NCBI GenBank assembly: GCA_024277285.1
Contig: JAJRVM010000080.1
Location: 1 to 64,000, forward strand
From: Planctomycetota bacterium
GTDB taxonomy: Bacteria > Planctomycetota > Planctomycetia > Pirellulales > Pirellulaceae
Direction: 5' to 3'
DNA length: 64,000 nucleotides
Positions 4,228 through 57,553 of this stretch are shown one piece after another. Position 1 is the first letter of the stretch, and the number at the start of each line of letters is the position of its first letter. The position numbers and the translations under genes are program-made. The notes under the pieces are model-generated. The model worked only from the letters and a program-made list of their open reading frames with translations, did not search any database and was not told where the DNA came from.

Positions 4228-4816
4228 ATAATACGGTCGTCGTTTGCAGTTGGAATTGCATTGCTGCTTCGTTGTTTGCTGATCGATCCCAGCCGCCGCG
4301 TGCGGTTGGCAGAAGGAGATTGCTGGGCTAGACGCGATGCCCCCCCCCCTCTCCCCCTCTCCACTTCTCCACTTCTCCACTTCTCTCTCCCTCTCCCTCT
4401 CACGCCGCCCAAGGCGTTAGGGGAGAGTCCGAATGGGCGGTCGCGACCATGATCGACGCTATCTGGCTGCGAACGGAAAACGGTCGCGAGACCCGTGTTT
4501 CGGAATAATTCCGGCGCCGCCACGGGGCGACTTTGCCGTTTGTGTCGATTCTGCGCACAAAACCCGGTTTTTTTGTCTGCAGGGGGGCGCTGGTGCCCAA
4601 CGGTGTATTGTGGCGGCGAAATGTCTCACATTTGCACTATCCAGGCGTCATTTTCAGTTGTTTTGCGGTGTACAACCCAATTCTGTCGCCCAGCCTCGTG
4701 CGCCCGTTTCTCACCAGCTTGCCGTGAATGCCATTTGGTGACACGTCTTTTCGGAACCGGCCTTGGTCTGCATAATGGCGGGTTCATTCACGAGCAACGT
4801 GCCAGAGGAGTTTGGA
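4228..4816. other. Intergenic region with CT-rich tract and 8 bp tandem repeat
   Basis: No gene is supported between the hydrolase and the ketosynthase. It contains a run of ten C at 4340-4349 followed by a pyrimidine-rich stretch. Within that, CCACTTCT occurs three times in tandem at 4361-4384, then CTCTCC-type near-repeats continue to about 4400. The remainder shows no clear promoter or terminator. Confidence 0.6.
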
Positions 4817-6028
4817 ATGCGCAGGGCGGTTATCACCGGCTACGGGATTATTTCCAGTATCGGAAACCACAAACCAGAGGTGCTTAAATCGCTGCGCGAT
4901 GGGACGTCTGGGGTCGAGTTTGTTGACGAGTACCGTGACAAGGGGTTTCGGTCGCAAGTCGCGGGCACGGTCACTGCGGACTTTCGCAGTCAGATCGAGC
5001 GTCAGTATCTGCGTTTCATGGGCGATGGCGCGGCATTCAGCTATCTTGCCATGCGTGAGGCGTTGGAGCATGCGGGGCTCGAACAGACTGAAATATCGAA
5101 TCCACGCACGGGGCTCGTCGTCGGGACGGGGGGGGCGTCGACCAAAAACTTGCTCGAAACGGTGAAGGTCTTCGAGAGCCGAGGCGCGCGCAAAGTGAAA
5201 CCGTTCATGGTCTCAAGGACCATGAACAGCTCGATCGCGGCTTGTTTGGCAACCGCATTCAAGATCAAAGGGACCAACTATTCCATCAGTTCGGCGTGTG
5301 CGACCAGTTCGCATTGCATCGGACACGGCGCTGAGTTGGTCAAACGGGGCGAGCAAGATATCGTGTTCGCCGGCGGTGGGGAAGAGTTGTTTTGGGTATC
5401 GACTGTGATGTTCGACAGCATGGGGGCGTTGTCCAGCAAATACAACGACCAACCTCATGCCGCATCACGGCCGTACGATGTCGACCGTGATGGGTTCGTG
5501 ATTTCCGGTGGTGGCGGCTTGGTGGTTATCGAGGAATACGAGTATGCCAAAGCGCGTGGCGCCAAGATCTATGCCGAAGTGGTGGGGTACGGTGCCAATT
5601 CGGATGGCGTCGACATGGTGGTTCCTTCGGGAGAGGGAGCGGTGCGGTGCATGCGTCAGGCTCTGAAGACGGTCCCCGACAAGATCCAGTACATCAACAC
5701 GCACGGGACCAGTACGCCGGCGGGCGACATTGCCGAGCTGAATGCGATTCGCGAAGTGTTTGGTGATGACGTTCCCGATATCAGTTCGACCAAAGCCTTG
5801 ACCGGTCATGCGTTGGGTGCGGCGGGCGTGAACGAAGCGATCTATTGCCTGCTGATGTTGGAACATGGCTTCATGCCCGCTTCGGCCAACATTCGCCAAC
5901 TCGATCCGGCTGCCGAGAGTTTTCCGATTCTACGCCAACGCAAGGACGATACTGACCTGCGCACGGTGATGAGCACCAGCTTCGGTTTCGGCGGCACCAA
6001 CGCCATCCTCGTCTTGCAAAAGATGTAA
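4817..6028 (+). CDS. fabB: Beta-ketoacyl-ACP synthase, FabB type
   Basis: Condenses acyl-ACP with malonyl-ACP in cytosolic fatty acid elongation. The 403 residues match the usual length of FabB (about 406). The thiolase-fold triad is intact: Cys161 in SSACATSS, His296 in NTHGTSTPAGD and His331 in LTGHALGAAG, almost the positions known for E. coli FabB (163, 298, 333). The ATG at 4817 is preferred over an upstream in-frame ATG because AGAGGAG lies just before it and MRRAVITGYG is the normal family N-terminus. It stands alone, without acpP, fabF or fabG nearby, so it may be a FabB paralogue for a special acyl product; that is inference. Confidence 0.9.
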   Translation: MRRAVITGYGIISSIGNHKPEVLKSLRDGTSGVEFVDEYRDKGFRSQVAGTVTADFRSQIERQYLRFMGDGAAFSYLAMREALEHAGLEQTEISNPRTGLVVGTGGASTKNLLETVKVFESRGARKVKPFMVSRTMNSSIAACLATAFKIKGTNYSISSACATSSHCIGHGAELVKRGEQDIVFAGGGEELFWVSTVMFDSMGALSSKYNDQPHAASRPYDVDRDGFVISGGGGLVVIEEYEYAKARGAKIYAEVVGYGANSDGVDMVVPSGEGAVRCMRQALKTVPDKIQYINTHGTSTPAGDIAELNAIREVFGDDVPDISSTKALTGHALGAAGVNEAIYCLLMLEHGFMPASANIRQLDPAAESFPILRQRKDDTDLRTVMSTSFGFGGTNAILVLQKM

Positions 6029-6179
6029 ACGTGTTCGCTCCGTAGGGTGTGTTTAACGAGCTCGGCAGCTCCATCAACTCAAGAGGCGAGCACAGGCAGA
6101 CCAAAATCCGGTATGCCTCTTCGTACCGAGTTCTCTTGGTATTCGTCCACGGCATCGAACCGTGAGCGGATACCGGCAA

Positions 6180-7493
6180 TTAAACGTTCCAGGGGTCGCG
6201 CGCCGGGCGGTGACGCAGACGGTTGGCTTCGTCGTCGTCGACAAACGCTGCTTTCACGGGGTCGAGTGTGAGTTTGCGGTTGAGCAACCAAGCCAATGCG
6301 GCGGCGTGGCAGGCGATATGCGAGTGGCGCATCACTTCCGGGTTGGCCGCAGTCGTGCCACGCGACTTGACGCAATCGAAAAAATTGCGCGCGTGGGCTG
6401 ACACGTCAAGCCCAACCGTTTTCTTGACCGGTTGTCTGAGCTCGCTCGCGAGCGATGCCGGTTTTACCACGATACCACCGCTATCGCCCGTTTAGACCGA
6501 CCCCTCGTCACCCACGAATCGTACCGGGCAAGTCCCCAGTTCTTGCACCCAACCGGGCCGTTTGCCAAACGGCGTGGCAAGGAACTCGATCACCAGTTTG
6601 ACGCCATTTGCGTAGCGCGCGATCACGTTCTTCGCGGAAGGTTCAAACTCGATCGGCATCGTGTCATCTGCCTGGTTCGCCCATTGGCACAGATCGACGG
6701 TATGTGCGCCCCAATCGAGTAGTCGGGCACCGGAATCGAAATCGTAGTACCCTCGCCAACGGCCTTCCACGTACTTCTTGTTGTAGGGTCGCCAGGGAGC
6801 GGGCCCAAGCCAAAGGTTCCAATCGACGATTTCCTTTGGCGGTGTGGGTTCGCCGGGTAACCAGGTTGTTTCGATCGTGGGCATATAGACGGTTGCGTAG
6901 AGCGTATGGAGTTTTCCCAGTTTGCCGCTGTGTGCAAGTTGCACCGCTTGCTGGAAATTAGGAACACTGCGCCGTTGCGTTCCGGCCTGGAAGACACGCT
7001 TGGTTCGCTGTATCGTGTCAGCCAACTCTTGGCAGTAGGCGATCGTCAGCCCGCAAGGCTTTTCGCTGTACACGTCCTTTCCCGCCTCGGCTGCCATCAT
7101 TGATGCGGATGCATGCCAGCGATCGCCGGTTGCGATCAACACGGTGTCGATATCTTCGCGAGCCAGCAACTCGCGGAAATCGCGGTACAGTTTAAGGTCT
7201 TGGTTCCCATAGTGGTTGTCCACAAGCTTCTTGCCCGCGTTGCGTCGACTGGCTTGCACGTCGGCGATGGCAACACATTGCACGTCGGGCAGTTGCAACA
7301 TGGCTTTCAGGTCATACGTGCAGCGTGGACCGATGCCGATGACGCCGAGCGAGAGTTTTTCGCTTGGTGCAATGCCGTTGGCGTTCTTGCCCAGCACGTG
7401 TGCCGGGACGATCCATGGGAGTGCGACTGCGGCGGAAGCGGTCGTGACATTGCGAATGAAATCACGACGCGTCGGATGCTGGCGGTTCTTCAT
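6180..7493 (-). pseudogene. Gfo/Idh/MocA oxidoreductase interrupted by an in-frame TAA
   Basis: Would encode a 437-residue exported NAD(P)-dependent sugar or inositol-type oxidoreductase. It has a Tat signal (TRRDFIRN), a Rossmann start (GVIGIGPRC), the EKP motif (VYSEKPCGLT) and the family C-terminal fold. A TAA at 6492-6494 is codon 334. Reading continues in the same frame through TGDSGGIVVKPASLASEL to the natural TAA at 6180. Relatives as I recall them have Glu after the GDEGxV motif, so one G-to-T change (GAA to TAA) explains the break with no indel. It lies 68 bp behind the LamG/HzsA-like gene on the same strand, probably co-transcribed. Without read-through the product stops at 333 residues and loses its last 103. 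Confidence 0.8.
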
Positions 7494-7561
7494 GTTGGTC
7501 TGGCCTCGCTGGTGAAAACGGCTTGAGAAGGGTAACTACGATTATGAACAAGAACGTGGCT

Positions 7562-10500: not shown

Positions 10501-11170
10501 CCTGGAAATGCTCGCCGGTGCCGCCGTTTGAACCAATAAAGGCAGGCGCCGTCGAGTTCGTGGCGATCGTACTCGCACGGCTCAAATGGCCGATTTCACG
10601 GCCATCGAGGAAGAGTCGCATCGCCTGTCCGTCAAAGGAAGCAGCGATGTGATGCCAGGCCCCATCGAGAAGAACGGCTGGCTGAACTGCCGCGTCGCAT
10701 TCCACGTAGCCGCCGATATTCAACCCCAGCGAGAGGATGGTACCATTGTTTTGGAACGAGAAGAGAATGCGTTCGGCGCACTCCTGGCGATAGATCTCGC
10801 GATAGCCACTTAGGGTCGCAGGCCTGACCCATGCGGAGAAGCTGATTTGCGGCAGGGAGTCGCGTGTGCTGAGGGCTGTCACCTGCAACCGGTGCGTTCC
10901 CGCGAGCCGCAATGCGTTGCCCTGGACGCCTCGCACTCGGCCGACGGAGGCATGAATCCGCAACGCGGCGGCACCCGATGCCGCGTTGATCCAAGGCCCT
11001 TCCGCTTCATCGAACGTCCAATGTGCCAGCAAGGCAGCCTGCGCTTGCAGAGCTTTCGGAACATGCTGCACTGTGTCTGGAGGGCCACCAGTGTCTGGGG
11101 GGCCACCAGCGATACCAAACGACACCAACACGGTCCAGACCGCAAACGGCCAAAATGTCCGGAAAAACAT
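7562..11170 (-). CDS. HzsA-like dihaem protein with LamG and beta-propeller domains
   Basis: Large exported protein of 1202 residues. The ATG at 11170 is chosen because AGGGAG precedes it by seven bases and a signal peptide follows at once (MFFRTFWPFAVWTVLVSFG); an in-frame ATG 27 bases upstream has neither. Order: signal; a GGPPDT duplication; a LamG/concanavalin-like domain at about 45-255 (AHWTFDE, AWHHIAASFDGQ, GSLDDLRIYH); a helical linker; a PD40/TolB-like propeller at about 540-840. Two c-type haem motifs, CLGCH (994-998) and CAECH (1045-1049), sit in the C-terminal part. This layout resembles the HzsA-related planctomycete family, named after the hydrazine synthase alpha subunit. Anammox function is not implied, since no partner subunits are present. 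Substrate unknown. Confidence 0.75.
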   Translation of the reverse strand: MFFRTFWPFAVWTVLVSFGIAGGPPDTGGPPDTVQHVPKALQAQAALLAHWTFDEAEGPWINAASGAAALRIHASVGRVRGVQGNALRLAGTHRLQVTALSTRDSLPQISFSAWVRPATLSGYREIYRQECAERILFSFQNNGTILSLGLNIGGYVECDAAVQPAVLLDGAWHHIAASFDGQAMRLFLDGREIGHLSRASTIATNSTAPAFIGSNGGTGEHFQGSLDDLRIYHCALTAQQVATLHRQGTELLAARLVEYEQQLAKIYHREATFAQTLTQFRAAMAEHPLSWDLDLTGVLLARLQVDFPADCANYMRATGASPLEYLTALDTKEFESLTARFIDLMQEYRPLTPSQRARLSVEQQRHWDEVASIVQQFETLRTKRPVETNSPEWIELLLAAARRTQRRPTISEAVAPYRTPATPQTTDLDETEAQQTLQKDWLHQVGGQPNKTHILNEITWTRQLAKRIADQPGVARDFSHQLGALDSLQAQTQQLAKLDPELYFAVRKIKRSIMFQNRAVDFDRVLLVDMPMPDGREWPHETRHRLGYMAVPGGRLLVLDGLAPNGHLRQLMPQAPLHGSFWRPDLSYDAQRVLFCFKPHNEKSFHLYEINLDATGLRQLTDGPYDDLDPIYLPGDRHLMFSTTRGHTYVRCMPPTNAFVLARCDTDGKNIYLVSRNNEPDYLPSVLADGRVVYTRWEYTDKPLWRAQGLWTVNPDGTQVNTVWGNQSVWPDLLKDARAIPNSRRIMFTGSAHHNWFSGAVGIIDPQLGLNFPNGLTKVTADLPWPESGNGPVDPVESPLYHASGKYEAYYSPYPLSEQDFLVSANRAGKFVLYLMDVFGNRELIYEGTHHIFHAVPVRPRPQPPVITDRVAWPARSQRRHPKQGVIFSGDVFQGAAESMRGKAKYLRVLNIEPKTYTYWHKRPYLSTGPVISAVQSEGVKCILGTVPIEKDGSVSFQAPSGTALHFQLLDDQYRALQTMRSFTGVMPGEQRGCLGCHENHSRAPQYQGTTLALERAPRTITPPPWEDDSVSYARFVRPMLDQYCAECHEGDGDARKVVDFTAQPGFLIFDKPYLLLTGRPSWGKAYKKPDKPIPGFGIANMLMVEGYDQRDPAAYRTPEPMSCLSYKSPLVDIAMSGNHYGVRVDPISLRKLIAWVDAMCPYRGSEEVRQLDDPDFQGIDWLSIRPRIKSAPTIVRPGPVD
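11073..11108. repeat. 18 bp tandem duplication inside a signal-peptide region
   Basis: Two adjacent 18 bp units (GTGTCTGGRGGGCCACCA) differ at one base. On the coding (-) strand they give GGPPDT twice, directly after the signal peptide of the LamG/HzsA-like protein, so the reading frame is kept. Confidence 0.9.
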
Positions 11171-11243
11171 GCTTAGACTCCCTTGTTGCTGTGCCATTGT
11201 ACCGCAGGCGTCCTTTCTATGTCACACGTTTTTGGCTAAAACC

Positions 11244-11355
11244 AGAGCTGAGAGTCGAGAGCTGAGAGTCGAGAGCTGAGAGTCGAGAGCTGAGAGTCGA
11301 GAGCTGAGAGTCGAGAGCTGAGAGTCGAGAGCTGAGAGTCGAGAGCTGAGAGTCG
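11244..11355. repeat. 14 bp tandem repeat, eight exact copies
   Basis: AGAGCTGAGAGTCG is repeated eight times without a mismatch, followed by a degraded partial ninth copy up to about 11370. It lies between the divergent LamG/HzsA-like gene and the xylanase gene and ends about a dozen bases before the xylanase ATG, so copy number would change promoter or leader spacing. There are no spacers, so it is not a CRISPR array. The 14 bp period is not a multiple of three. Confidence 0.97.
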
Positions 11356-11382
11356 AGAGCTAGAGACGAGGAACACAACACC

Positions 11383-12708: not shown

Positions 12709-12715
12709 ACCGGAG

Positions 12716-12744
12716 CCATGAGCAGTTTCCCCATGAGCAGTTTC
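12716..12744. repeat. 15 bp tandem duplication after the xylanase gene
   Basis: CCATGAGCAGTTTCC is followed directly by CCATGAGCAGTTTC. It lies in the short gap between the convergent xylanase and oxidoreductase genes. Confidence 0.9.
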
Positions 12745-12787
12745 ATAGTCACTCGTTGCAGCGGTATTGGATTTCCAACTCGGGATG

Positions 12788-19839: not shown

Positions 19840-22614
19840 ATGTTTGCTCGCCTGGCGCACTTCGTGACACGCCATTGGATGCTGGTCGTGGTGATCTGGT
19901 TGGTCGCCGTGGTCGCGGTGCGCGTTGCCGCGCCGCCGTGGCAGAGCATCACACATGATGGCGATTTCGCCTATTTGCCCGCTAGAATGCCAAGTGTGGT
20001 TGGCGAGCAATGGATGACTCGCGCCTTCCCACGTCAACGTGGGCGCAGTCAGGTGGTGGTGGCGATAGCACGGCCGAAACACGCACTGAGCAAGGAAGAC
20101 ATCTTTGTTGCCTATGATGTGGCGCGCCGCTTGAAGAACCTCTTCGCTGCTTCACGTTTGGCCGAATCGCAACGTCTGGCGAAGCTCGAACTCGAACTGC
20201 GACGCGATCATCAGGATGCCAATGTGGCAGATGCCCATGCCCAGTTCCTGCGCGCGACAAAACAGGCCGACGAAGCACTCGAGGACGCGTTGCTGCTGGA
20301 CGAGCGATTGGCGGACTATTGGGGTGAACGCGTTGCGAGTGATCCCACAACGGCCGCGATCCAACCGCCACGATTAGCGGCTATCTACCACAATCGCGCC
20401 TTGCTCGATGAGTTGCTCGGGGAACAAGAAGCGGCTCGGAAGCATCGCGCGCTGGCCGTGCAGCTTGATGAGACGCTGGCGGACGCCGGCGATCAAGTGA
20501 TGCCCGAAGGAGCTGGGACACTCCCCGTGGTCGATGCGTGGACATGGCGAGAAAGCTATTTTGGCGACAAGCTGGCAAGCCGTGATCAATGTGTCCGGTT
20601 GGTTGTGTTGCAGTTAACCAACGAGTTCATGGCGGTCGACAACATTCACGTCTTGAAACAAATCGAGGCGGAATTGGCACCGGTCCGCGCGCATATTGAC
20701 GATTGGACGACCGGCGGTCTGGAGGTATTGCAGTCGGGGTCAGCCGCGGTAGGAGCGGATCTGTTGCGCTCGGCGGCCAGCAGCATCAAGAATACAGAAT
20801 TATTTACCGTCGTGCTGGTCGTCATCATCTTGGCACTGGTCTATCGAGCGCCGCTGTTCGTCGCACTTCCCGTCGTGACGATTCTGGCTTCGCTGCTGGT
20901 GGCAACCGGTGTCGTTGCGTTGTTGACGATGCTGTCCGACGTGCCTGGTTTCGGGTGGTGGACGCTGAAAGTTTTTTCGACGACCAAAATCTTTATTGTC
21001 GTCATTTTGTTTGGTGCCGGGACGGACTACTGTCTGTTCTTAATAGCGCGATACAAAGAAGAGCTGCAGGCGGGTTTGCCGCATCAAGAGGCGGTCGCCG
21101 CGGCGCTGACCCATGTGGGAGATGCGTTGGCCGCCAGCGCTTTGACAACCGTTCTTGGGTTGGGCATGATGTTTTTTGCTGAATTCGGCAAGTTCTGCTA
21201 TAGCGGTCCCGTCATCGGACTTTGTCTGGCAATTACCCTGCTGACCTGCATGACCTTGACGCCAGCGATCATGAGCGGGTTGGGGCCACTGCTTTTTTGG
21301 CCGCTGGGCGTTGATGACGGGGGCGTTGATGACGGGGCAAAGGCCGGGCAACGAAATGTGCGGTCTGCAGCGCGCGCCAGTGTCGCAGCCAGCGTGTGGC
21401 ATTTTATCGCGCATCATATTGTCGCCAGGCCAGGGACCATACTGGTCGTCTCCGTGTTGACGCTCACGCCTTTGGCCGCCTACGGAATCGCACATAGGAA
21501 CGATGTCACTTATGACTTTTTGAGCGGTCTTCCGAACAAGTGCCCGAGCAAACGGGGGGCTGAAGAACTGCGCGCGCATTTTCCCGTTGGAGAGAGCGGA
21601 CCCGTCACGGTATTGGTGCAACAGAATAATGCTGAGTTCGAGACGGCGCAGGGGCGTGAGCTGATTCGCAGTTTGTCGGATCAGCTTCATTTGCCGGGGG
21701 TTCGGACCGTACGTAGCGCCGAAGACCCATTGGGGGACTACGCACCTGGCGAGAAACCGGGCATTCTCAGTGAACGGGGCAGGATGCTTCACGTCTTACG
21801 TGCACACCCACGTACCAAAGCGATCTTTGTTGCACAGACGCCTGAATTGGCAGGGAATGTCGCTCGATTTGAACTGGTTTTGGAGCATGACCCGTTTTCG
21901 ATCGAGGCGATTGGGGTCGTTGACCAAGTTGAAGCCCTATTGCAGGAGTTGATTGCTCAAGCTGATTCGTCTTGGTCCGGTGCACAATACGCTTTGACCG
22001 GAACCACCGCCGCGATCCGCGATCTGCGTTCGGTCACACGACGCGACAATATTCGTATTCAGGTCTTGGTTGTTTTGGCCGTGCTGGTCGTGTTGCAAAT
22101 CGTTCTTAAACGACCCGCCGTCTGCCTGTTCATGATGTTGACTGTGCTGTTCAGCTATTACATTACCATCGGCGTGACGACACTGTTCTTTTCGGTCGCG
22201 TACGGTGATTCGTATCAAGGGCTCGATTGGAAAGTGCCGTTGTTTCTGTTCGTGATTCTGGTGGCGGTCGGGCAGGACTACAATGTCTATCTCGTCACTC
22301 GCGTGTTTGAAGAACAGGCTCGTATCGGTCCCTTTGCCGGGCTACGGCGCGCGGTGGTCTGCACCGGTGGGATTATCACCAGTTGTGGTGTGATCATGGC
22401 CGGTACCTTTATCTCGATGACCAGTGGCACTTGGAGCGACTGGTTGCCGTTTATTCCACAGGTCGTTTCCAGTACCTATGGCGTATTGCAGAGCATTGTG
22501 CAGATGGGGTTCGCGCTGGCATTGGGAGTGCTGTTGGATACCTTCATCGTGCGGCCCATTCTCGTTCCGGCATTTCTGGCGCTCATATGTCGTTGGCGTC
22601 ACCGAAGCCGTTAG
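19840..22614 (+). CDS. MMPL/RND family transporter
   Basis: Inner-membrane exporter of the RND superfamily, 924 residues, built as two similar halves. Each half has one N-terminal helix (residues about 12-33; HIIVARPGTILVVSVLTLTPL), a large periplasmic domain and a bundle of five helices. MMPL hallmarks are visible: FGAGTDYCLFLIARYKEEL in half one and AVGQDYNVYLVTRVFEEQA in half two, each carrying the Asp-Tyr proton-relay motif. Likely substrates are lipids or hopanoid-type molecules; this is not readable here. The ATG at 19840 has CAGGA just upstream, while an in-frame GTG at 19765 would add 25 residues before the first helix. A duplicated GVDDG lies in the central cytoplasmic loop. Confidence 0.88.
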   Translation: MFARLAHFVTRHWMLVVVIWLVAVVAVRVAAPPWQSITHDGDFAYLPARMPSVVGEQWMTRAFPRQRGRSQVVVAIARPKHALSKEDIFVAYDVARRLKNLFAASRLAESQRLAKLELELRRDHQDANVADAHAQFLRATKQADEALEDALLLDERLADYWGERVASDPTTAAIQPPRLAAIYHNRALLDELLGEQEAARKHRALAVQLDETLADAGDQVMPEGAGTLPVVDAWTWRESYFGDKLASRDQCVRLVVLQLTNEFMAVDNIHVLKQIEAELAPVRAHIDDWTTGGLEVLQSGSAAVGADLLRSAASSIKNTELFTVVLVVIILALVYRAPLFVALPVVTILASLLVATGVVALLTMLSDVPGFGWWTLKVFSTTKIFIVVILFGAGTDYCLFLIARYKEELQAGLPHQEAVAAALTHVGDALAASALTTVLGLGMMFFAEFGKFCYSGPVIGLCLAITLLTCMTLTPAIMSGLGPLLFWPLGVDDGGVDDGAKAGQRNVRSAARASVAASVWHFIAHHIVARPGTILVVSVLTLTPLAAYGIAHRNDVTYDFLSGLPNKCPSKRGAEELRAHFPVGESGPVTVLVQQNNAEFETAQGRELIRSLSDQLHLPGVRTVRSAEDPLGDYAPGEKPGILSERGRMLHVLRAHPRTKAIFVAQTPELAGNVARFELVLEHDPFSIEAIGVVDQVEALLQELIAQADSSWSGAQYALTGTTAAIRDLRSVTRRDNIRIQVLVVLAVLVVLQIVLKRPAVCLFMMLTVLFSYYITIGVTTLFFSVAYGDSYQGLDWKVPLFLFVILVAVGQDYNVYLVTRVFEEQARIGPFAGLRRAVVCTGGIITSCGVIMAGTFISMTSGTWSDWLPFIPQVVSSTYGVLQSIVQMGFALALGVLLDTFIVRPILVPAFLALICRWRHRSR
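21306..21335. repeat. 15 bp in-frame tandem duplication in the MMPL gene
   Basis: GGGCGTTGATGACGG occurs twice in a row, giving GVDDG-GVDDG in the cytoplasmic linker between the two transporter halves. The length is a multiple of three. Confidence 0.92.
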
Positions 22615-24688: not shown

Positions 24689-25774
24689 CTATCGCGCTTC
24701 GTTGGCCAACAGCTTGCGAACCTGTTCGCGATTGACCGGTTTGATGATCCCTTTTTCGGTAATCAGGGCGGCGATGAGTTCGGCGGGCGTGACATCAAAG
24801 GCGGGGTTGTAGACCTGCACGCCGTCGGGAGCCGTCTGCTTGCCCAGGCCGCAAGTGATCTCGTTGGCCGATCGCTGTTCAATGGGAATGAGATCGCCAT
24901 GGTCGAGGTTCAGATCAAACGTCGAGCTTGGGGCGGCTACATAGAATGGGATATCGTGGGCGCGCGCCAACAGGGCAACGCCGTAGGTCCCGATCTTGTT
25001 CGCGACATCCCCATTGGCGGCGATTCGATCGGCGCCGGTGATCACCGCGTCGATGCGCCCTTCACGCATCACTTGAGCGGCCATGGAATCGCAAATCAGA
25101 GTCGTTTCGACGCCACGTTGCATGAGCTCCCAGGTCGTCAGCCGTGCACCTTGAAGCAGTGGCCGTGTTTCGTCGGCGTAGACATGCAGCTGCTTGCCTT
25201 CATCCTGAGCGGCATAGATCACGGCCAACGCCGTGCCGTATTCCGAAGTTGCCAGCCAACCGGCATTGCAGTGTGTCAATACTCCCATGCCGTCGCGCAA
25301 GAGCGTAGCGCCGTGTCGGCCGATCGCGTGGCACATGACGCGATCTTCGTCGTGTAACGTTTTCGCCTCGCGTAACAACGCGGCGTGCACCTCGGCTGAC
25401 GCCAGCTCGCCCTCCAGTGCTCGAGCTCGGTCCGCCATGCGCTGCAGGGCCCAGAAGAGATTAACGGCCGTTGGCCGACTCGATCCAAGGTACTCCACAA
25501 TCCGATCAACTTCTTGAGCAAAGGACTTGGCGTCGCCATCGGGCGCTTGCTGCAATCCGATCACCACGCCATAGGCGGCGGCAATGCCAATGGCCGGTGC
25601 CCCACGCACTTGAAGACGCTTGATCGCTTCCCAAACATCGCTCAGGCTAGTGCAGCGGCACTCGCGCACCTCCAACGGCAACAACGTCTGATCGATCAGG
25701 ACGAGCTGCCCGTCTGTGCCCCCTTCCCACCGCAGCGTTTCCCAATTGCTGGTTTCCCAGTTGCTACTTGGCAT
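24689..25774 (-). CDS. mtnA: S-methyl-5-thioribose-1-phosphate isomerase
   Basis: Converts methylthioribose 1-phosphate to methylthioribulose 1-phosphate in the methionine salvage pathway. It has 361 residues from the ATG at 25774. That start overlaps the last 11 bases of purE (ATGCCAAGTAG), which indicates translational coupling; longer in-frame extensions only read through purE in a wrong frame. Catalytic Cys169 lies in GVLTHCNAGWLATSEYG and Asp249 in ITGADRIAANGDVANKIGTY, agreeing with the known Cys160/Asp240 pair of the Bacillus enzyme. VRGAPAIGIAAAYG is the N-terminal signature. The N-terminus holds an [10 protein letters not shown] duplication. Other salvage genes are not adjacent. Confidence 0.93.
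   Translation of the reverse strand: MPSSNWETSNWETLRWEGGTDGQLVLIDQTLLPLEVRECRCTSLSDVWEAIKRLQVRGAPAIGIAAAYGVVIGLQQAPDGDAKSFAQEVDRIVEYLGSSRPTAVNLFWALQRMADRARALEGELASAEVHAALLREAKTLHDEDRVMCHAIGRHGATLLRDGMGVLTHCNAGWLATSEYGTALAVIYAAQDEGKQLHVYADETRPLLQGARLTTWELMQRGVETTLICDSMAAQVMREGRIDAVITGADRIAANGDVANKIGTYGVALLARAHDIPFYVAAPSSTFDLNLDHGDLIPIEQRSANEITCGLGKQTAPDGVQVYNPAFDVTPAELIAALITEKGIIKPVNREQVRKLLANEAR
25737..25766. repeat. 15 bp in-frame duplication at the mtnA N-terminus
   Basis: GTTTCCCARTTGCTR occurs twice in tandem with two differing bases. On the coding strand it makes SNWET twice at residues 4-13 of MtnA, beside the purE-mtnA overlap. The repeat is outside the conserved fold. Confidence 0.85.
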
Positions 25775-28929: not shown

Positions 28930-29647
28930 AACAAGATCCATGCACATTATGTCAGTACTGCAGCGCGCCCGTTCTGCAGCGACTCAGTGCTGCAGTGGCT
29001 GCCACGACTCGTCACATGACGACACATCAATTCTGTTCGTTCCGTACCGCTGACACGACACTCGTGTTGCAACGCTTCGGGAGCATCACCACCATGCGCG
29101 CGGCCAGCGGGCAATGTGGAACCGGTCCCCATGGTGCCAGTCAACGCGGTGCCAGTCAACGCGGTGCCAGTCAACGCGGCAACTACTGCGCCGCTGGCTC
29201 TTGCCGCTCTACGTGCGATCTTAGTTCGCGGAACTCGAGTACATTCCTGCCCTGGCCCCACTCCTCGTGCCGATCGCGATCTGCGTGCGTCAAGACTCGG
29301 TAACTCCAATTATACAAGCGATTTGCCGCGTGGGAAGATTCTACTTGCGGGGATGCTCCCCGCGTGCGTTGATTTCAGCGTCAAGATCGGGACCGGATAT
29401 ATCGATTGTACCGGTCGTCGCTCTTCCGACTGCCTGGCCGTCCCGATTCTATGCTGGCAATTTGCCCGTTTCGTGGTTGCTTCGATTCGCCGGGGTCGCT
29501 ATACCAAGCTATCGAGGAATCGGTATCGGAGCGGTGGAAGCTCGTTTGGATCTTCTTCGTTTGCCGAGAAGCAAGTAATCGAGGTCACGGGCCTCGCGTA
29601 TTTTTCATTTCGCGTTCGGGCATTGTGACAGATTCGAGCCATATACC
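28930..29647. other. Intergenic region between the GYF and ClpP-like genes
   Basis: No gene is supported. The region holds a three-copy 15 bp tandem repeat at 29133-29177. Open frames between 29116 and 29628 have a poor start context and disagree with each other in frame, so I do not call them. Nothing else is recognised. Confidence 0.5.
29133..29177. repeat. 15 bp tandem repeat, three exact copies
   Basis: GGTGCCAGTCAACGC is repeated three times with no mismatch in non-coding DNA between divergent genes. GCCAGTC also occurs in the duplications between groES and groEL. Confidence 0.96.
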
Positions 29648-32921: not shown

Positions 32922-33396
32922 AAGAGTCCGAATCGCGTTGTGTGTGAACAACGTAGGGAGTGTTGCACCGTTGCACGACGTTTGCGGTCGACCGACCGGC
33001 ACCATGCCGCGCACCAATCGCCCAACACCTGGGAACGCTCGGAGAGTGCGTTCCAGAGTATCCGATTGGCGGCTCGCAAATAGCACGCTACTATTATCGG
33101 CGAATGCCACGCGCAAGGCAAGTTCACTCGGCGCGTAGCTTTCCGCTGCTGGCGCGGTGTCCCTATACGAAGGCCCCTATACGAAGGCCCGTGCGCCAGA
33201 GTCGTCCAGCTTAGACACGGAAGCGTGTGGACGTCAGGATTCACTGTGTCCGACCTGCTCTGCTGCTCTTGCCTCCGTGATGCGATTGTGCCGGCGGCGA
33301 TAGGCACTGGCCAACGTATTGGGATTCGGAGTACGATAAAGACTGCGAACAGTCACGGACAGGTACAGAAGATCAACGTTGTGTGATGAGTCGGTT
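32922..33396. other. Divergent intergenic region before apbE
   Basis: No gene is supported between the haem protein and apbE. At 33162-33189 the 14-base unit CCTATACGAAGGCC occurs twice in exact tandem. No clear promoter was recognised. Confidence 0.6.
33162..33189. repeat. 14 bp tandem duplication
   Basis: CCTATACGAAGGCC occurs twice, exact and adjacent, in the divergent gap before apbE. Confidence 0.92.
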
Positions 33397-36103: not shown

Positions 36104-37885
36104 CTAGTCCCACCACCAAGCATCTCGTGGCAGCTTCGCCAGATCGGGTGCGGCCGCGTGATGTTGGGCATCCATGCGACCGTAAGTATCCGTCTTGACC
36201 GATTGGGCAGACACGAGTTGAGCGGTGTCGACCGAGACGCCGCCACTGACGCCAACCACAAACCGTTTCTTGCTGACATCAACGGCATTGATGATACTCT
36301 CCACCGCCCGTGGTGCCGGTCCCAGCGAAACTTGATAGGCATTTGCGTCGCCGAAGTGAGTCATATGCCAATTGACTTGAGTAGGCAGGTCTTCCGATCG
36401 CATGATGCCGCAGACCAACGCCAGATCAAAGACATTGCGCAGCTCAGCATAGACTGGATATTTCTTGGCCAGCGTGTCGAAGTGCTTCGTGAAACTATGG
36501 GCAAATTCGGCATTGAGCAAGTCGGATTTACCGGTATGGATACGTTCGCCCTTTTGCGTCAACATCTCATTTTCGCTCAACACGCGTACGCCTGGTCCGT
36601 CGAATTGATACGCGTCGCGATCCGTGGTAGTGCGGACACCTTCGTAATTGAGCGTGACCCACCAACGCAGGACGCTCATCGGCAAGTCCCGATCGCCGGC
36701 GGTCTGTTTCAAGGTGTCCAAATAGCTGACGACGCCAAGCGTTCCTTCCTCAACGCCGATGCCAATGAGTTTCATGTGGAAGTCAGCCTCGACGAGGATG
36801 CGTGCCGCGTGGGTGCGCGAATCGATTCCCCAGACATCGATATCCTGCTTGCCCAACGCGTCGCGCAGTTCGGCGATCCAGCGATCGCGACGGTTGGGGC
36901 GAACGGCCTTGCCGCTCCAGGAATCAATAAACGCCTTAGCGGCGGCCAAGTTTTCCTGGCGTGGTTTGATGGCGCAGCCTAACCGGCCATGTTGATCGTA
37001 TGCATTACGTAGCAGCGTGACTAAATCGTCCAATTGCAATACGGGTGTTCCCGTTTCCACGTTGACGATGCGGCCTTGGGAATCGGTTCGCCAATCGCCA
37101 GCCGGGCCGGCCACAACGATGTCGCCCGTTTCCGGGTAGACGAGCAAGTACTTGACGCGATAGATGCCACCCAAAACACGCATCGCTTCGTCTGGCGATT
37201 TGCCAAACGCTTTGAGTAGTTGGAGTTGCCGTTCCAGACGGACCAGTGAAACTTTGCGCATGGCAGAAGTGCGACGAACCACGCGGTTGCCTGAGTCGGC
37301 CATACCCTTTGCTCGCGCGCTGCCTAATAATTCGCTGTGACGCGGCGGAGCCAACCGTTTCATGACTCCCGACGTGTCAACGTACACGCCTGTTGGAAAC
37401 GATTCGATCGCACCCGCCCCCCCCACTTCGTCCCAGGAATCCGGAGCAATCGTTGAGGTGATCAACTCGATTAGCGTGTCGAAGTCGGCCATCGCCGCAC
37501 CGCCGTGGGCACCGATCGGGCGCGCTCCCATTTCGCCGGTGATGCGACTGCGGGCCAAGTCGCTCTTCACGCCCAACAGCGTTGCGAGTGATGCCTCGCG
37601 AGCACCCATGTCGGCCTGCGCCGTTGCAATTTGGCCAAGGAACCGGTCACGCTGTTCCGTATCTGTGATGCCATGTGTCAATTGAAGGGCCGGCCCAAAT
37701 TCGCCCGCCGCAACAGACGACGCAATGTCACGGTTCGTGGCCGTGTCGGCGGAGTTTGGAGCAGGCGGGTCAGTCGCCGCGGCACTTGCCAGGGGCACGA
37801 CCAGCAGCGACGTGAAAACGAGCAGAACCAAGCAACGATTTGTCCAACCTGCGTTCCAGAAAAGTACGTTCCAGAAAAGTACCAC
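36104..37885 (-). CDS. Exported DUF1598 domain protein
   Basis: 593 residues of a planctomycete-type family without known function. The GTG at 37885 is chosen because GAGGAGGA precedes it by seven bases and a signal peptide follows (WTNRCLVLLVFTSLLVVPLASA). Longer readings run back through palindromic intergenic repeats and are not credible. The DUF1598 part is recognisable near the C-terminus: GIDSRTHAARILVEADFHMK, WWVTLNYEGVRTTTDRDAYQ and LNAEFAHSFTKHFDTLAKKY. The N-terminus carries a duplicated VLFWN from a 15 bp repeat, which puts an extra hydrophobic pentapeptide in the signal. Function is unknown. Confidence 0.8.
   Translation of the reverse strand: MVLFWNVLFWNAGWTNRCLVLLVFTSLLVVPLASAAATDPPAPNSADTATNRDIASSVAAGEFGPALQLTHGITDTEQRDRFLGQIATAQADMGAREASLATLLGVKSDLARSRITGEMGARPIGAHGGAAMADFDTLIELITSTIAPDSWDEVGGAGAIESFPTGVYVDTSGVMKRLAPPRHSELLGSARAKGMADSGNRVVRRTSAMRKVSLVRLERQLQLLKAFGKSPDEAMRVLGGIYRVKYLLVYPETGDIVVAGPAGDWRTDSQGRIVNVETGTPVLQLDDLVTLLRNAYDQHGRLGCAIKPRQENLAAAKAFIDSWSGKAVRPNRRDRWIAELRDALGKQDIDVWGIDSRTHAARILVEADFHMKLIGIGVEEGTLGVVSYLDTLKQTAGDRDLPMSVLRWWVTLNYEGVRTTTDRDAYQFDGPGVRVLSENEMLTQKGERIHTGKSDLLNAEFAHSFTKHFDTLAKKYPVYAELRNVFDLALVCGIMRSEDLPTQVNWHMTHFGDANAYQVSLGPAPRAVESIINAVDVSKKRFVVGVSGGVSVDTAQLVSAQSVKTDTYGRMDAQHHAAAPDLAKLPRDAWWWD
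37852..37881. repeat. 15 bp in-frame duplication in the DUF1598 signal peptide
   Basis: CGTTCCAGAAAAGTA occurs twice exactly. On the coding strand it makes VLFWN-VLFWN two codons into the protein, lengthening the signal peptide by five residues without a frameshift. Confidence 0.93.
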
Positions 37886-37935: not shown

Positions 37936-37986
37936 CCCAGATCGCCCGGTGTCCCAGATCGCCCGGTGTCCCAGATCGCCCGGTGT
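37936..37986. repeat. 17 bp tandem repeat, three exact copies
   Basis: CCCAGATCGCCCGGTGT is repeated three times, then CCCAGATG begins a broken fourth. It lies about 50 bases upstream of the DUF1598 start, in the leader or promoter region. Confidence 0.95.
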
Positions 37987-38100
37987 CCCAGATGTGTCCG
38001 GTAGCGCTAAGCGACGCTCTCCTGCAATCAGCCCCTGTAATCCCTTCAGCATGCCACAAACCCGAGGGGGGTGTCAAGCAACATTCCGATGATCCCAGAT

Positions 38101-38564
38101 GATCCCAGACAGTCTGATTTGTGCTTGGCCCCTCCGGGGCTTTTCTTGGGGGGGTGGTGTCAGGTTCCGGGGTCTGACGACCCCGGCAAAGGCTGTGTTG
38201 GCCCCTCCGGGCCAATGCTAGAAGCGTGTCACAATGAAAAAAAGCGTGAAGTGAATTCGGCCCGGCAGGGCCGGTACAGCCTCTGCCGGTGCCGTAAGGC
38301 ACCGGTGTGGTTCAAACTAGAAGTGGCAAGCCCCGGATGGGGCGACACAGGAATTGTGATCGGTGCAGCCTGTATCGCCCCATCCGGGGCTCTTGTGGGG
38401 TTCGAGTTGCCAGGTTCCGGGGTCTGACGACCCCGGCAAAGGCTGTGTTGGCCCTCCGGGCCAGAGCCGCCGTGGCACCAAGAGAAATGGCAAGTCGACT
38501 CCGCTGCTTCAATCCCATGCTCCCGCTGGGGATCCCAGGATCCCAGACAGTCTGATTTGTGCTT
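38101..38564. repeat. REP-like palindrome cluster bounded by 26 bp direct repeats
   Basis: The 26 bases 38101-38126 recur exactly at 38539-38564 and enclose a dense set of palindromes. A 54-base unit (38161-38214) recurs at 38411-38463 with one base missing; it holds the stem CCGGGGTC-TGAC-GACCCCGG and a GGCCC-CTCC-GGGCC arm. A 23-base inverted repeat with one mismatch joins 38329-38351 to 38370-38392. CCGGTGCC-GTAA-GGCACCGG forms another hairpin near 38285-38304. A 10 bp duplication GATCCCAGAY precedes the cluster at 38091. The 1 kb gap 37886-38889 otherwise holds no gene. These resemble dispersed bacterial REP/BIME-type elements. Confidence 0.88.
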
Positions 38565-38889
38565 GTAGCTTGGGATGCGACTCAATCACGGCAGAGTCTC
38601 CTCGTGCCTGCGCGGTCGATTGCCACGAGCGTGGCGGTAACTGTCAAAATGGCAGTCGCGCGGAGGCATTGTGCGTCGGCTCAAGTTGCGAGTATCGCAG
38701 CCGAGACCCGAAAACGGAGTGGAAAAAGGCGGAATGGGGATTTCGCGAGTGATTTGGCGCGAAAATTGCCCAAAAGGAGGCCCGAGTAGGTCTCTGTTGA
38801 CCAATTTGGCAGCTGCGTCCAGACGGCTGATCGCTTGGGGACGCGGAATTTGGCGGATATGCGAATCAACAATTGGAGGTGTAGAGCAC

Positions 38890-39216: not shown

Positions 39217-39354
39217 GGAACATTGAGGGTTGGATCGGTTTGGCAACCCCGGTGGGGGGCGCGGTTCAGCAAGACCCCTGGAAATTGATCGGGCGTATAT
39301 GTTTTCGCCCGTAGCCACGGCACTCGTCGGTTACAGGCGTCCGATTGTGGCAGC

Positions 39355-39414
39355 CAGCGTGCTTGATGTCAGCGTGCTTGATGCCAGGGGGCCAGTCGGC
39401 CAGGTGCCAGTCGG
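39355..39414. repeat. Two 15 bp duplications between groES and groEL
   Basis: CAGCGTGCTTGATGY occurs twice at 39355-39384. Immediately after, GCCAGTCGG occurs at 39391 and again 15 bases later at 39406 within a partly degraded unit. Both lie in the unusually long groES-groEL spacer. Confidence 0.88.
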
Positions 39415-41190: not shown

Positions 41191-41580
41191 CTTGCTGCTC
41201 ACGCTGGATGTGGATAGGGCACCACCGCCGAGCGGCGCATTTTGACGAAGTAAAGCGACGGGCCATGACTCTCGCAGTTGGCTGGCGGCCCTGCGGCCCT
41301 GCTCGTCGGGGTTCCCAGCACCGGCCCGTTTAGTCCGAGCGGTCGGAGGAATCGAGATAATCGGCACGAAGCGGGGCTGGGGCTTGGTCACCGGGCCCGT
41401 TTGTTTGCCACCCTATGCCATTGAGTAATATACTGGAGCGTAGGTTCGGACGTGTCGCACGGGCAGATTGCGCGGCGCGCATTACGGCAATAGGCGCGCG
41501 GCACCCGAACCAGGTCCCAGCGTGCACCAGGTCCCAGCGTAGACCGTGGCGCTAGCCCCAGGTTGTCAGGAAACCTCCTC
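41191..41580. other. Intergenic region with 17 bp duplication
   Basis: No gene is supported. CCAGGTCCCAGCGT occurs at 41510-41523 and again at 41527-41540, a period of 17. It ends about 40 bases before the next ATG, in the leader of the HEAT protein gene. Confidence 0.7.
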
Positions 41581-53867: not shown

Positions 53868-54083
53868 TCCGTGATTCGCTCCGAAGCCGAGGGAGGGGCG
53901 TGGATGCGAGCGTCGTGTCTAGAAAGGGGACCGCTAATCAACGCTGACAGACGCTAATAGAAACGGGCCGTCCGCCGTGCTCGTACCGGTCGAGGCGCGG
54001 CACGCCGACAGATTGAGTTGTCGGTCGCATCTCCAAGCTGACCCCCGCCGCAGCACTTCCCTTGCCTGGGATGGCATCTCAGG

Positions 54084-54805: not shown

Positions 54806-55297
54806 TTACTTAAGGTGTACGTCGCAGGCACCACCGTCGCAGGCATCACTGTCATTGGCAACACTGTCGCAGGCAACACTGTCATTGGCATCACTGTCAT
54901 TGGCATCGAGTCGGCCAAGACGATACCGTCGTTTGGCGACGAGGTTGTAGAACCACTGCCAGAGGGGTAACGACCCGGGGATATGCAGCAAGGGGGCCAG
55001 AATCCATAACCACGGCATGTGACGGCTAAGATAGCGGATGGCACTGGCACCGCCGAACCGTTTGCCGGTTGAAGTGACCAAGTACAGCTGTTGCATCATC
55101 TGATCGTGCGTCAAATCCGCACACAATTCAGCGGCACGCCTGTCGTGCAGCGACAGAAAGGCGAGTCGCTGGGTCTGATCCCATTTGGCAAGTCGCTGGA
55201 CCTGCCCGGTACAGAATCGGCAATGCCCATCGTAGATCACAATGTCGGCAGCCGGACGCTCGCGTGGATCAGCCAAGTGACGTTTTTTCGCCTGCAT
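54806..55297 (-). CDS. DCC family thiol-disulfide oxidoreductase-like protein (DUF393)
   Basis: 163 residues. The family motif is near the start: IVIYDGHCRFCTGQVQRL with Cys26 and Cys29, then LAFLSLHD, a KRFGGASAIRYLSRHMP helix and a hydrophobic WILAPLLHIPGSLPLWQWFYNLVAKRRYRLGR. Relatives end with a short Cys-containing tail after RYRLGR. Here the tail is stretched by a five-residue repeat, DANDS-DANDS-VACDS-VANDS-DACDG, before the normal-looking GACDVHLK ending. The expansion comes from six 15 bp units at 54821-54910. The ATG at 55297 is used because the upstream extension has no family match. Confidence 0.82.
   Translation of the reverse strand: MQAKKRHLADPRERPAADIVIYDGHCRFCTGQVQRLAKWDQTQRLAFLSLHDRRAAELCADLTHDQMMQQLYLVTSTGKRFGGASAIRYLSRHMPWLWILAPLLHIPGSLPLWQWFYNLVAKRRYRLGRLDANDSDANDSVACDSVANDSDACDGGACDVHLK
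54821..54910. repeat. 15 bp tandem repeat, six copies, in a coding tail
   Basis: Six adjacent 15-base units of the type GTCRYWGGCAWCACT (for example GTCGCAGGCACCACC and GTCATTGGCATCACT), with a few substitutions. They encode pentapeptides rich in Asp, Asn, Ser, Ala and Cys at the end of the DCC protein, all in frame. Unit variation shows both duplication and later change. Confidence 0.95.
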
Positions 55298-55572
55298 GTC
55301 TATTTTACCCAACCTTATCGAATGCCTGTTACCGCAATCGTAGCCGGTTTTCTGGGTCTGCCTAGCTGAGTTTCGCACATCGGACCGTGGTCCGAGCCTC
55401 GCCCCATTGGTGATTTGCGGGCAATTGCGTGCGTCATGTTGGCAGCGTGTGCTCCGGGCCGAGCGTGTACTTAAGCGGGATTAACACTCGGTTTGTTTCC
55501 CGATTTTCCGGTATCTCGCCCGGGGAAACCGCCTATAATGACGGGCACTTGGTCGAAAACCGTTGCGTGCAT

Positions 55573-55660
55573 CCTAAGAACCTGTCACGCAGCTACCGGC
55601 AGCGACGCCCCATATCGAAAACCCCTGCACGTTAACCAGGTTTTGGGACAGGTTCTAAGG
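55573..55660. mobile_element. MITE-like element, 88 bp, with 16 bp inverted ends
   Basis: The left end CCTAAGAACCTGTCAC and the right end, read on the opposite strand, CCTTAGAACCTGTCCC agree at 14 of 16 bases. The interior (55589-55644) has no gene. It sits 35 bp before the GTG of the coiled-coil protein, so it lies in that gene's promoter or leader. The ends differ from those of the 105 bp element at 31687. The rest of 55298-55695 shows nothing recognised. Confidence 0.68.
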
Positions 55661-55695
55661 AGCCGTTGCGTTCGTTCAAAGGAGAATGACCCACC

Positions 55696-57381: not shown

Positions 57382-57420
57382 AGCACGAACCACCGTATCA
57401 CGTCGCAGCGTTTTCCCACG

Positions 57421-57468
57421 CCCTCACTTCCGTCCCCGCTGCCCCGGCGGCGGAGACGGAAGTGAGGG
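57421..57468. terminator. Strong hairpin between convergent genes
   Basis: CCCTCACTTCCGTC (57421-57434) pairs perfectly with GACGGAAGTGAGGG (57455-57468) around a GC-rich loop. There is no T-run on either strand right after it, so it is a weak intrinsic terminator or a transcript-stabilising stem for both convergent genes. Confidence 0.5.
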
Positions 57469-57507
57469 GAATAGCTGGCATCGCGGGTAGCTCAACAGTC
57501 TTATTCA

Positions 57508-57553
57508 CCCATGGAACGAGCCCATGGAACGAGCCCATGGAACGAGCCCATGG
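57508..57553. repeat. 13 bp tandem repeat, three and a half copies
   Basis: CCCATGGAACGAG is repeated three times exactly, followed by CCCATGG. It lies in the convergent intergenic region after the hairpin, about 40 bases from the end of the membrane protein gene. Confidence 0.96.

What the first reader, a model, noticed from the sequence alone, without database searches (positions are those of the whole stretch)
4361..57553. Window-wide excess of short exact tandem duplications, most often 15 bp
At least fifteen loci carry adjacent copies of an 8-18 bp unit: 4361 (8x3), 11073 (18x2), 11244 (14x8), 12716 (15x2), 21306 (15x2), 25737 (15x2), 29133 (15x3), 33162 (14x2), 37852 (15x2), 37936 (17x3), 38091 (10x2), 39355 (15x2), 39391 (15x2), 41510 (17x2), 54821 (15x6) and 57508 (13x3). 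Units differ in sequence, so this is a process and not one dispersed element. All coding cases are multiples of three and fall in signal peptides, linkers or tails; non-coding ones are free of that rule. Many units contain CCAG or its complement. Most copies are exact, meaning recent. A mutation process making about 15 bp duplications, perhaps slippage or a repair pathway, would steadily diversify leaders and protein termini. I do not know a description of this in planctomycetes.
Basis: partly seen in the sequence, partly recalled or inferred. Interest (0 to 1): 0.72.

Follow-up and report, generated by a model that had tools for sequence, protein, structure and literature searches.

The report
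Size-ruled short tandem duplications in planctomycetes
This planctomycete and some of its relatives keep copying stretches of about 14 bases (12 to 18) next to themselves all over the chromosome, far more often than the other bacteria sampled and with a definite length preference, which points to an unrecognised DNA repair or replication error rather than ordinary slippage.

Summary
Exact tandem duplications with units of 11-40 bp: 7 loci in the 64-kb window, 138 in 1.46 Mb of five related genomes, 13 in 680 kb of 21 other planctomycetes, 0 in 500 kb of non-planctomycete controls. In noncoding DNA the lengths form one hump (11-19 bp, mode 14) with little at 9-11 bp. For 56 of 86 two-copy loci, end homology is no more than chance gives. 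Between two congeners about 10% diverged, 47 of 61 mappable duplications have no exact same-period array in the other. Ku was not found in four relatives tested, three of them densely sampled, Cas1 not in three; PolA's flap-nuclease domain is in 20 of 20. Best reading: a size-ruled, homology-independent local duplication process, most likely fill-in of staggered nick pairs; the enzyme is unknown. Corrections: some arrays are dispersed families, gene ends are not favoured, and the enriched core is CAG/CTG.

The parts
4345..4401 (.). C/T-rich low-complexity 8/16-bp repeat, intergenic (exact 8-bp x3.5 at 4358-4385); marginal member
11073..11109 (.). 18-bp x2 duplication with one mismatch, near the N-terminus (aa 30-42) of the 7562-11197 minus-strand gene
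11244..11370 (.). 14-bp unit array, 8.4 exact copies (9.1 with mismatches), in the intergenic gap between divergent genes 7562-11197(-) and 11383-12708(+)
12716..12744 (.). 15-bp unit, 1.9 copies, exact, intergenic
21306..21337 (.). 15-bp x2.1 exact duplication, in frame inside the MMPL-family gene (aa 504-515 of 940)
25737..25765 (.). 15-bp x1.9 duplication with one mismatch, at the N-terminus (aa 4-13) of the 24689-25774(-) gene call
29133..29179 (.). 15-bp x3.1 exact array, noncoding in my gene calls (inside an unconfirmed 170-aa ORF without Pfam match)
33161..33190 (.). 14-bp x2.1 exact duplication, intergenic
37852..37882 (.). 15-bp x2.1 exact duplication, intergenic in my gene calls
37936..37993 (.). 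17-bp x3.4 exact array, intergenic in my gene calls
38088..38109 (.). 10-bp x2.2 exact duplication, beside a 27-bp block repeated at 38539-38565
39353..39387 (.). 15-bp x2.3 duplication with one mismatch, intergenic upstream of the cpn60-like gene
41510..41543 (.). 17-bp near-duplication (15 of 17 positions), intergenic
54821..54907 (.). 15-bp unit array encoding the C-terminal tail of a DCC1-like protein; 20 aa (4 units) longer than in the closest homolog P0002
57508..57553 (.). 13-bp x3.5 exact array, intergenic between convergent genes

Best explanation
In this planctomycete and several relatives (G003, G002, G219, G077, G005) an ongoing mutation process copies a stretch of about 14 bp (11-19) immediately next to itself at almost any site, without needing homology at its ends. 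Most likely two nicks on opposite strands about 14 nt apart, or an equivalent staggered break, are filled in by a polymerase and rejoined, so that the overhang sequence appears twice. Arrays then grow or shrink by slippage between the copies and are lost quickly; in genes only multiples of three survive. Shown: excess, length law, frame filter, no end homology beyond chance at about two thirds of two-copy loci, fast turnover, uneven spread among genomes. Inferred: the nick-pair fill-in step. Unknown: which enzyme sets the spacing. Ku and Cas1 are not general causes.
For: Density: 145 loci in 1.524 Mb (window plus five genomes) against 13 in 680 kb of 21 other planctomycetes and 0 in 500 kb of E. 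coli chromosome and four plasmid replicons. Noncoding loci per period 11-19: 4, 8, 10, 12, 11, 7, 5, 4, 4 after removal of related-unit clusters and merging; before removal, periods 9-11 show 4, 3, 3 against 1.4, 0.4, 0.0 expected. Coding 66 of 68 multiples of 3. End homology: among 56 two-copy loci with 0-3 extra bases, 22/21/10/3 against 30.3/16.1/6.8/2.7 from virtual duplications nearby, p=0.15. Adjacency: copies with a gap of 1-5 nt are fewer than adjacent ones in each of the six sets, although they span five offsets. Single-copy state in the congener at G219 loci L241:827, L241:9160, L247:4403, L248:13313, and at L149:19627 (there a 13-nt single copy against a 14-bp unit). Length differs by lineage: median 12 in G077 (n=20), 15 in G002/G219/G003 (n=85), p=0.0002. 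Ku not found in G001, G002, G003, G005; Cas1 not found in G001, G002, G003.
Against: No junction motif or enzyme was found. 30 of 86 two-copy loci carry 4 or more extra bases (2.7 expected); they may be decayed third copies or homology-mediated events. A smaller excess at 7-8 bp in noncoding DNA (46 and 25 against 17 and 5) is not explained by a 14-bp ruler. Rejoining without Ku has no identified machinery; in mouse cells without Ku80 or Lig4 the remaining single duplications almost all show microhomology (PMC5730883, passage), unlike here. CAG/CTG enrichment in the units is not predicted by random nicking. In the congener comparison only 15 of 45 unshared cases with good flanks differ by an exact multiple of the unit; in 8 of the 15 the difference is one unit as expected, in 7 it is larger than the whole copies minus one (G002 7004, 125554; G219 99627, 133993, 203597, 353175, 376788). 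The 2.93-copy array at 99627 fits a gain of two; the other six need loss in the congener or reflect poor alignment. In raw alignment gaps between the congeners only 3 of 137 indels of 11-18 bp scored as duplications, a test weakened by gap placement at 10% divergence. All 'recent' inferences rest on one genome per species; no polymorphism within a species was seen.
Confidence: 0.45

Rival explanations
1. Replication slippage or flap ligation at pre-existing short direct repeats (ABA to ABABA, as in yeast lacking the FEN1 flap nuclease), with the observed lengths set by Okazaki-flap length.
For: 30 of 86 two-copy loci have 4 or more extra bases; the G219 locus L152:10456 (8 extra bases) may have had a partial end repeat before duplication, judging by the congener; CAG/CTG, the E. 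coli primase start trinucleotide (recalled, not tested for this phylum), is the most enriched 3-mer in the units. [quoted passage not shown]
Against: 56 of 86 loci show no more end homology than chance; slippage should fall with unit length, but periods 9-11 are nearly empty while 13-16 peak; the flap-nuclease domain PF02739 is present in 20 of 20 genomes, high and low.
Confidence: 0.25
2. The duplications are remnants of mobile elements: target-site duplications left after an element was excised, or small dispersed minisatellite elements that move.
For: In G219/G002, 20 exact-period segments at some eight loci fall into two linked unit clusters (one member has a different unit), and three segments in G002 into another; REP-like palindromes and Y1 transposases are present.
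Against: 117 loci remain after removal of related-unit clusters; lengths spread over 11-19 rather than one fixed value; Cas1 (casposon-type integrases leave 14-15 bp, recalled) was not found in G001, G002 and G003; Y1 transposases and reverse transcriptases occur in 20 of 20 genomes of each search, high or low. I did not search for resident elements flanked by 11-19 bp repeats.
Confidence: 0.15
3. No special process: the usual rare duplications persist because these large genomes have relaxed selection or contain functional repeat arrays.
For: Duplications lie mostly outside genes, and in-frame ones survive; G002 and G219 have genomes of about 11 Mb.
Against: Relaxed selection does not give a length hump or a difference between lineages; G077 (5.5 Mb) has the highest density and G127 (9.6 Mb) a low one; there is no bias to a type of intergenic gap (31/13/19 against 33.2/10.1/19.8).
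Confidence: 0.1
4. Assembly artefact.
For: Several relatives are draft or metagenome contigs; the window's own source is not known to me.
Against: G002, G003 and G219 stretches come from contigs of 10.8, 7.1 and 11.0 Mb and show the same density; artefacts would not respect the reading frame (66 of 68).
Confidence: 0.03

Closest known systems
Small tandem duplications of eukaryotes from staggered breaks (Ku80-dependent end joining; PMC5730883, PMC8355091, passages read)
   Same: Adjacent, short; explained there by opposite-strand nicks, fill-in and rejoining
   Different: Those need Ku80, and without Ku80 the rest almost all show microhomology; here Ku was not found in four relatives tested and most loci show no end homology beyond chance. 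A hump near 14 bp was not shown in what I read
FEN1/rad27-type duplications in yeast (PMC5677150, passages)
   Same: Short insertions giving tandem copies, including 16-bp units
   Different: Those are bounded by short direct repeats (ABA to ABABA); here most loci have none beyond chance, and the flap-nuclease domain is present
Prokaryotic satellites or minisatellites (PMC6749651, abstract and passages)
   Same: Tandem units over 10 bp, coding ones in multiples of three; Rhodopirellula baltica is listed there with 29 satellites (4.06 per Mb)
   Different: That survey needs 4 or more copies and describes arrays, not two-copy duplications; no 14-bp length law was seen in the passages read
Short tandemly repeated repetitive (STRR) sequences of cyanobacteria (recalled)
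   Same: Short dispersed tandem units in intergenic DNA, like the CCCCATCRTTYTGCC family in G219
   Different: STRRs are mostly 7-mers of a few families (recalled); most units here are unrelated to each other

Membership tests
Ku-dependent end-joining duplications | Ku protein present | tested here: not met
   PF02735 in 2 of 20 genomes; none in G001, G002, G003, G005; G219, G077 and the window's genome not tested; G001 is known to be dense only from one 21.6-kb locus
Ku-dependent end-joining duplications | Adjacent copies without required microhomology | tested here: met
   56 of 86 loci with 0-3 extra bases fit chance, p=0.15; 30 of 86 do not
FEN1-loss (rad27-type) duplications | Short direct repeats at both ends of the duplicated stretch | tested here: not met
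   Not beyond chance for 56 of 86 loci; possible for 30 of 86
FEN1-loss (rad27-type) duplications | Loss of the flap nuclease | tested here: not met
   PF02739 in 20 of 20 genomes, high and low
Replication slippage at simple repeats | Rate falls with unit length | tested here: not met
   Noncoding excess small at 9-11 bp, peak at 13-16 bp
Cas1/casposon target-site duplication | Cas1 integrase present | tested here: not met
   PF01867 not found in G001, G002, G003; present in G219, G077, G005, G217
Dispersed satellite family | The same unit at many unlinked loci | tested here: inconclusive
   Met for CCCCATCRTTYTGCC-type units in six sampled stretches of G219 and two of G002, and for a 17-bp unit in two stretches of G002; 117 loci remain after related-unit clusters are removed. 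Not testable for the window's own genome, which is not held

The most novel reading that the evidence does not exclude
Some Pirellulaceae carry an enzyme system with a built-in, lineage-tuned ruler (about 12 bp in G077, about 15 bp in G002/G219/G003) that duplicates DNA in place without Ku: a bacterial mutation generator that I found nowhere described, constantly supplying in-frame 4-, 5- and 6-residue insertions and new intergenic arrays.
Probability: 0.2. Interest if true: 0.82.

Novelty: new variant of a known kind. Interest (0 to 1): 0.6.

Why it matters
A length-selected, homology-independent duplication process in bacteria without Ku would be a mutation class with its own machinery. It would explain how these genomes gain repeats and short in-frame insertions so quickly, give a bacterial parallel to the small tandem duplications of plants and animals, and make the origin of such duplications testable in a simple cell.

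Tried and rejected
Classification of all alignment gaps between G002 and G219 as duplication or not was uninformative: at 10% divergence the gap placement splits the repeats, and only 3 of 137 gaps of 11-18 bp (of 1418 indels in all) scored as duplications, so I mapped flanks instead. Junction sequence logos (53 events) show no column that survives correction for 32 columns (largest chi-square 11.0, correction worked out by hand). CAG position inside the unit shows no clear offset. The two halves of 14/16-bp units are not clearly alike (0.29 against 0.25, n=38), so 14 is not a doubled 7. An 'exact 12-mer elsewhere' test does not separate units from controls (104 of 152 against 97 of 152); only the hit counts exposed the dispersed families. 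PolX (PF14792) occurs in 20 of 20 genomes, high and low, and reverse transcriptases likewise: neither explains the difference between genomes. Preference for gene ends or for gap type: none. Conservation of the window's own loci in relatives could not be tested at DNA level, because the nearest relative is about 81% identical in a conserved gene and most flanks do not align. A looser count (units from 9 bp, 12 or more matching bases) gives 1 hit in the 500-kb controls, where the strict count gives 0. The high/low grouping was made after seeing densities: G001, G002 and G003 first stood out, while G219, G077 and G005 were chosen for kinship or synteny. G003's 400 kb do not overlap its locus, G002's do; G001 was not sampled further. 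G078 (3 loci in 108 kb) and G217+G226 (3 in 40 kb) were left out of both groups. The 16 low-group genomes read by a single 20-kb stretch are too thinly sampled to be called low one by one (2 of 16 hold two such duplications, 3 hold one, 11 none). G219 is given as 59 duplications (periods to 60 bp) and 58 (to 40 bp). Genes were called with my own simple ORF/codon-usage script, not a standard gene finder.
Full report
What is in the window. TRF and an exact scan confirm most of the listed loci. Eight exact duplications have units of 11 bp or more (13, 14, 14, 15, 15, 15, 15, 17 bp); none with a unit of 11-39 bp arises from an order-4 Markov model in 20 simulations. 39391 is not a real 15-bp duplication, several others have mismatches or fall short of two copies, and 4361 is low-complexity sequence. 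The gene content (DUF1598, DUF1559) and the cpn60 relatives place the window among Pirellulaceae-like planctomycetes. No genome is held for it. The best cpn60 hits among one-per-species genomes are 87% identical in protein, and the nearest in DNA is G077 at 81%.

How unusual it is. Counting exact duplications with units of 11-40 bp, merged within 150 bp, gives window 7 loci in 64 kb, G003 34 in 400 kb, G002 32 in 400 kb, G219 43 in 400 kb, G077 20 in 160 kb and G005 9 in 100 kb. That compares with 13 in 680 kb of 21 other planctomycetes (20 from G003's family, plus Lacipirellula limnantheis, G009) and 0 in 500 kb of controls: E. coli 150 kb, pSymB 200 kb, and 50 kb each of p42f, pRHL1 and a Deinococcus plasmid. 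G078 (3 in 108 kb) is low; G217+G226 (3 in 40 kb) are intermediate. The controls hold only one chromosome, so 'other bacteria' is thinly sampled. By record title, G002 is TBK1r, G003 SV_7m_r and G005 Roseimaritima sediminicola. The 80 cpn60 loci from many planctomycetes also carry such repeats unevenly (52 with units of 10-40 bp in 1.23 Mb), again most often 15 bp (13 of 52).

The length law. In my gene calls, 66 of 68 coding duplications have units divisible by three (15 bp: 35, 12 bp: 19), against 32 of 110 outside genes or at their edges. Noncoding counts per period, against an order-3 model, are 4 / 3 / 3 at 9 / 10 / 11 bp (expected 1.4 / 0.4 / 0.0) and 7 / 17 / 21 / 15 / 12 / 6 / 4 / 4 at 12-19 bp (expected at most 0.1); there is a smaller unexplained excess at 7 and 8 bp (46 and 25 against 17 and 5). 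After removing related-unit clusters and merging neighbours, 117 loci remain: 44 coding and 73 noncoding (7 of these at a gene edge), the latter with periods 11-19 of 4, 8, 10, 12, 11, 7, 5, 4, 4 and eight longer ones. The dominant '15 bp' in genes is thus this hump passed through the reading frame. G077 has median 12 (n=20) against 15 (n=85) in G002/G219/G003, p=0.0002, and the same in noncoding loci alone, 12 (n=13) against 15 (n=53), p=0.001.

End homology. For 86 two-copy loci the number of extra matching bases (the homology available to slippage) was compared with virtual duplications of equal length 80-400 bp away. With 0-3 bases the counts are 22, 21, 10, 3 against 30.3, 16.1, 6.8, 2.7 (p=0.15). 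The remaining 30 have 4 or more, where 2.7 are expected. In the class with 4 or more, sequence beyond the first mismatch still matches the neighbouring copy at 0.51 (right) and 0.42 (left) against 0.35-0.36 for the others (before family removal), so part of them are decayed third copies; some may be true homology-mediated events.

Turnover. G002 and G219 align over 316 kb with 10.1% mismatches. Of 96 duplications in both, 61 could be mapped by flanks and 35 could not; 14 of the 61 have an exact array of the same period (plus or minus 1) in the other, 47 do not. Some of the 47 are decayed rather than absent (for example G002 117858, one mismatch). Single-copy counterparts exist at L149:19627 (13 nt against a 14-bp unit), L241:827, L241:9160, L247:4403 and L248:13313. 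Of 45 unshared cases with flank identity of 0.8 or more, 15 differ by an exact multiple of the unit: 8 by one unit, as one duplication predicts, and 7 by more units than the whole copies minus one, of which only the 2.93-copy array at L149:19627 fits a simple gain. The other 30 show no exact multiple; further indels or poor alignment probably intervene. Exact copies outnumber one-mismatch copies 217 to 93 in the high set (7 and 7 in the model), but 12 to 14 in the low set and 0 to 8 in the controls (counts per neighbourhood, so long arrays count more than once). In the window, the DCC1-like protein ends in a tail that is 20 residues longer than in P0002, which has the conserved ending in one copy; the other eight homologs that I read also lack the array (9 of 231 hits read).

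Sequence preferences. CAG/CTG is the most enriched trinucleotide in the units: 77 of 117 loci against 54.4, and 50 of 73 noncoding loci against 33.3, neither reached in 400 resamples; in coding loci alone it is weak (27 of 44 against 21.2, reached by 19 of 400). CAGC reaches 44 against 22.9 and CCAG 32 against 20.4. No junction motif stands out. Coding duplications do not favour gene ends (12 of 43, 25.9% expected, p=0.73), and noncoding ones do not favour a type of intergenic gap.

Dispersed families. Two linked clusters of 13 and 7 exact-period segments, in G219 and G002, carry CCCCATCRTTYTGCC-type units (one member has a different unit); they lie in six sampled stretches of G219 and two of G002, with up to 185 12-mer matches in the sampled DNA of one genome. 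Three segments in two stretches of G002 carry TCCAAAATCTTCCTACC-type units with up to 114 such matches.

Candidate machinery. Ku is found in 2 of 20 genomes and in none of G001, G002, G003, G005 (G219 and G077 not tested). The PolA flap-nuclease domain is in 20 of 20. Cas1 is in 11 of 20, but not in G001, G002, G003. PolX is in 20 of 20 (over the cut-off in none of 14 control genomes), reverse transcriptases in 20 of 20, Y1 transposases in 20 of 20. None of those tested separates high from low genomes. PolX is a plausible gap filler, no more.

Interpretation. Length ruling, independence from end homology at most loci and strict adjacency resemble the eukaryotic small tandem duplications explained by opposite-strand nicks, fill-in and rejoining (PMC8355091 and PMC5730883, passages), which need Ku80 and, without it, almost always show microhomology. 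They do not resemble the repeat-bounded insertions of FEN1-deficient yeast (PMC5677150, passages). I therefore favour a Ku-independent break-and-fill process, with the enzyme unknown, at 0.45; that some size-ruled local duplication process exists is much surer (about 0.9). The CAG/CTG signal leaves room for a link to priming of the lagging strand (primase preference recalled).

What is in print. Searches for planctomycetes with tandem duplication (all 11 rows listed), Stieleria with repeats (none; that TBK1r and SV_7m_r belong to Stieleria is recalled) and planctomycetes with tandem repeats and minisatellite (one) brought no description of this process. Related searches on short or close repeats, nicks and flap duplications showed none in the rows listed, which are the first 2-15 of up to 369. 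A paper on planctomycetes of Porphyra tabulates tandem repeat content and discusses duplicated genes, not this process, in the passages seen (PMC4807772). A satellite survey lists Rhodopirellula baltica with 29 arrays (PMC6749651, passages), and a survey of close direct repeats across prokaryotes reports general trends (PMC4060949, passages). The library holds open-licence papers only.

Noticed in passing
window 38128-38213, 38259-38307, 38410-38463: Strong palindromes (38250-38480 folds as DNA with z-score -9.3) that recur as dispersed copies, 82-90% identical in G078 and G019 and 72-76% in G005; one weaker hit in G002 (C1:2532070-2532262, 68%) lies beside a Y1 transposase at 2531508-2531849, as in REP elements with their RAYT gene (comparison recalled).
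   Followed up: partly
window 38101-38127 and 38539-38565: A 27-bp block (GATCCCAGACAGTCTGATTTGTGCTTG) occurs twice, 438 bp apart, on either side of the palindromes.
   Followed up: no
L146:7150-7384, L152:11498-11616, L244:6012 onward, L245:15193 onward, L246:1178, L248:9632 (G219): A dispersed minisatellite with unit CCCCATCRTTYTGCC (13-16 bp) at intergenic sites of G219, also in G002 (L140:10990, L238:3219).
   Followed up: partly
L139:16748-16847 and L235:14149 (G002): A second dispersed 17-bp unit, TCCAAAATCTTCCTACC, with up to 114 12-mer matches in the sampled 400 kb.
   Followed up: no
G003, ten places listed: Ten reverse transcriptase genes with the same 543-aa open frame length and nearly the same score, perhaps a group II intron expansion.
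   Followed up: no
G025, places listed: Six extra 5'-3' exonuclease (flap nuclease) domains in short open frames (258-358 aa) beside PolA, unlike the other 19 genomes searched.
   Followed up: no
noncoding DNA of the six high-density sets: A smaller excess of 7- and 8-bp exact duplications (46 and 25 against 17 and 5 expected), separate from the 14-bp hump.
   Followed up: partly
window 7562-11197: Large protein with a laminin G-like domain and a domain like the hydrazine synthase alpha middle domain; a name by domain only, not evidence of anammox.
   Followed up: no
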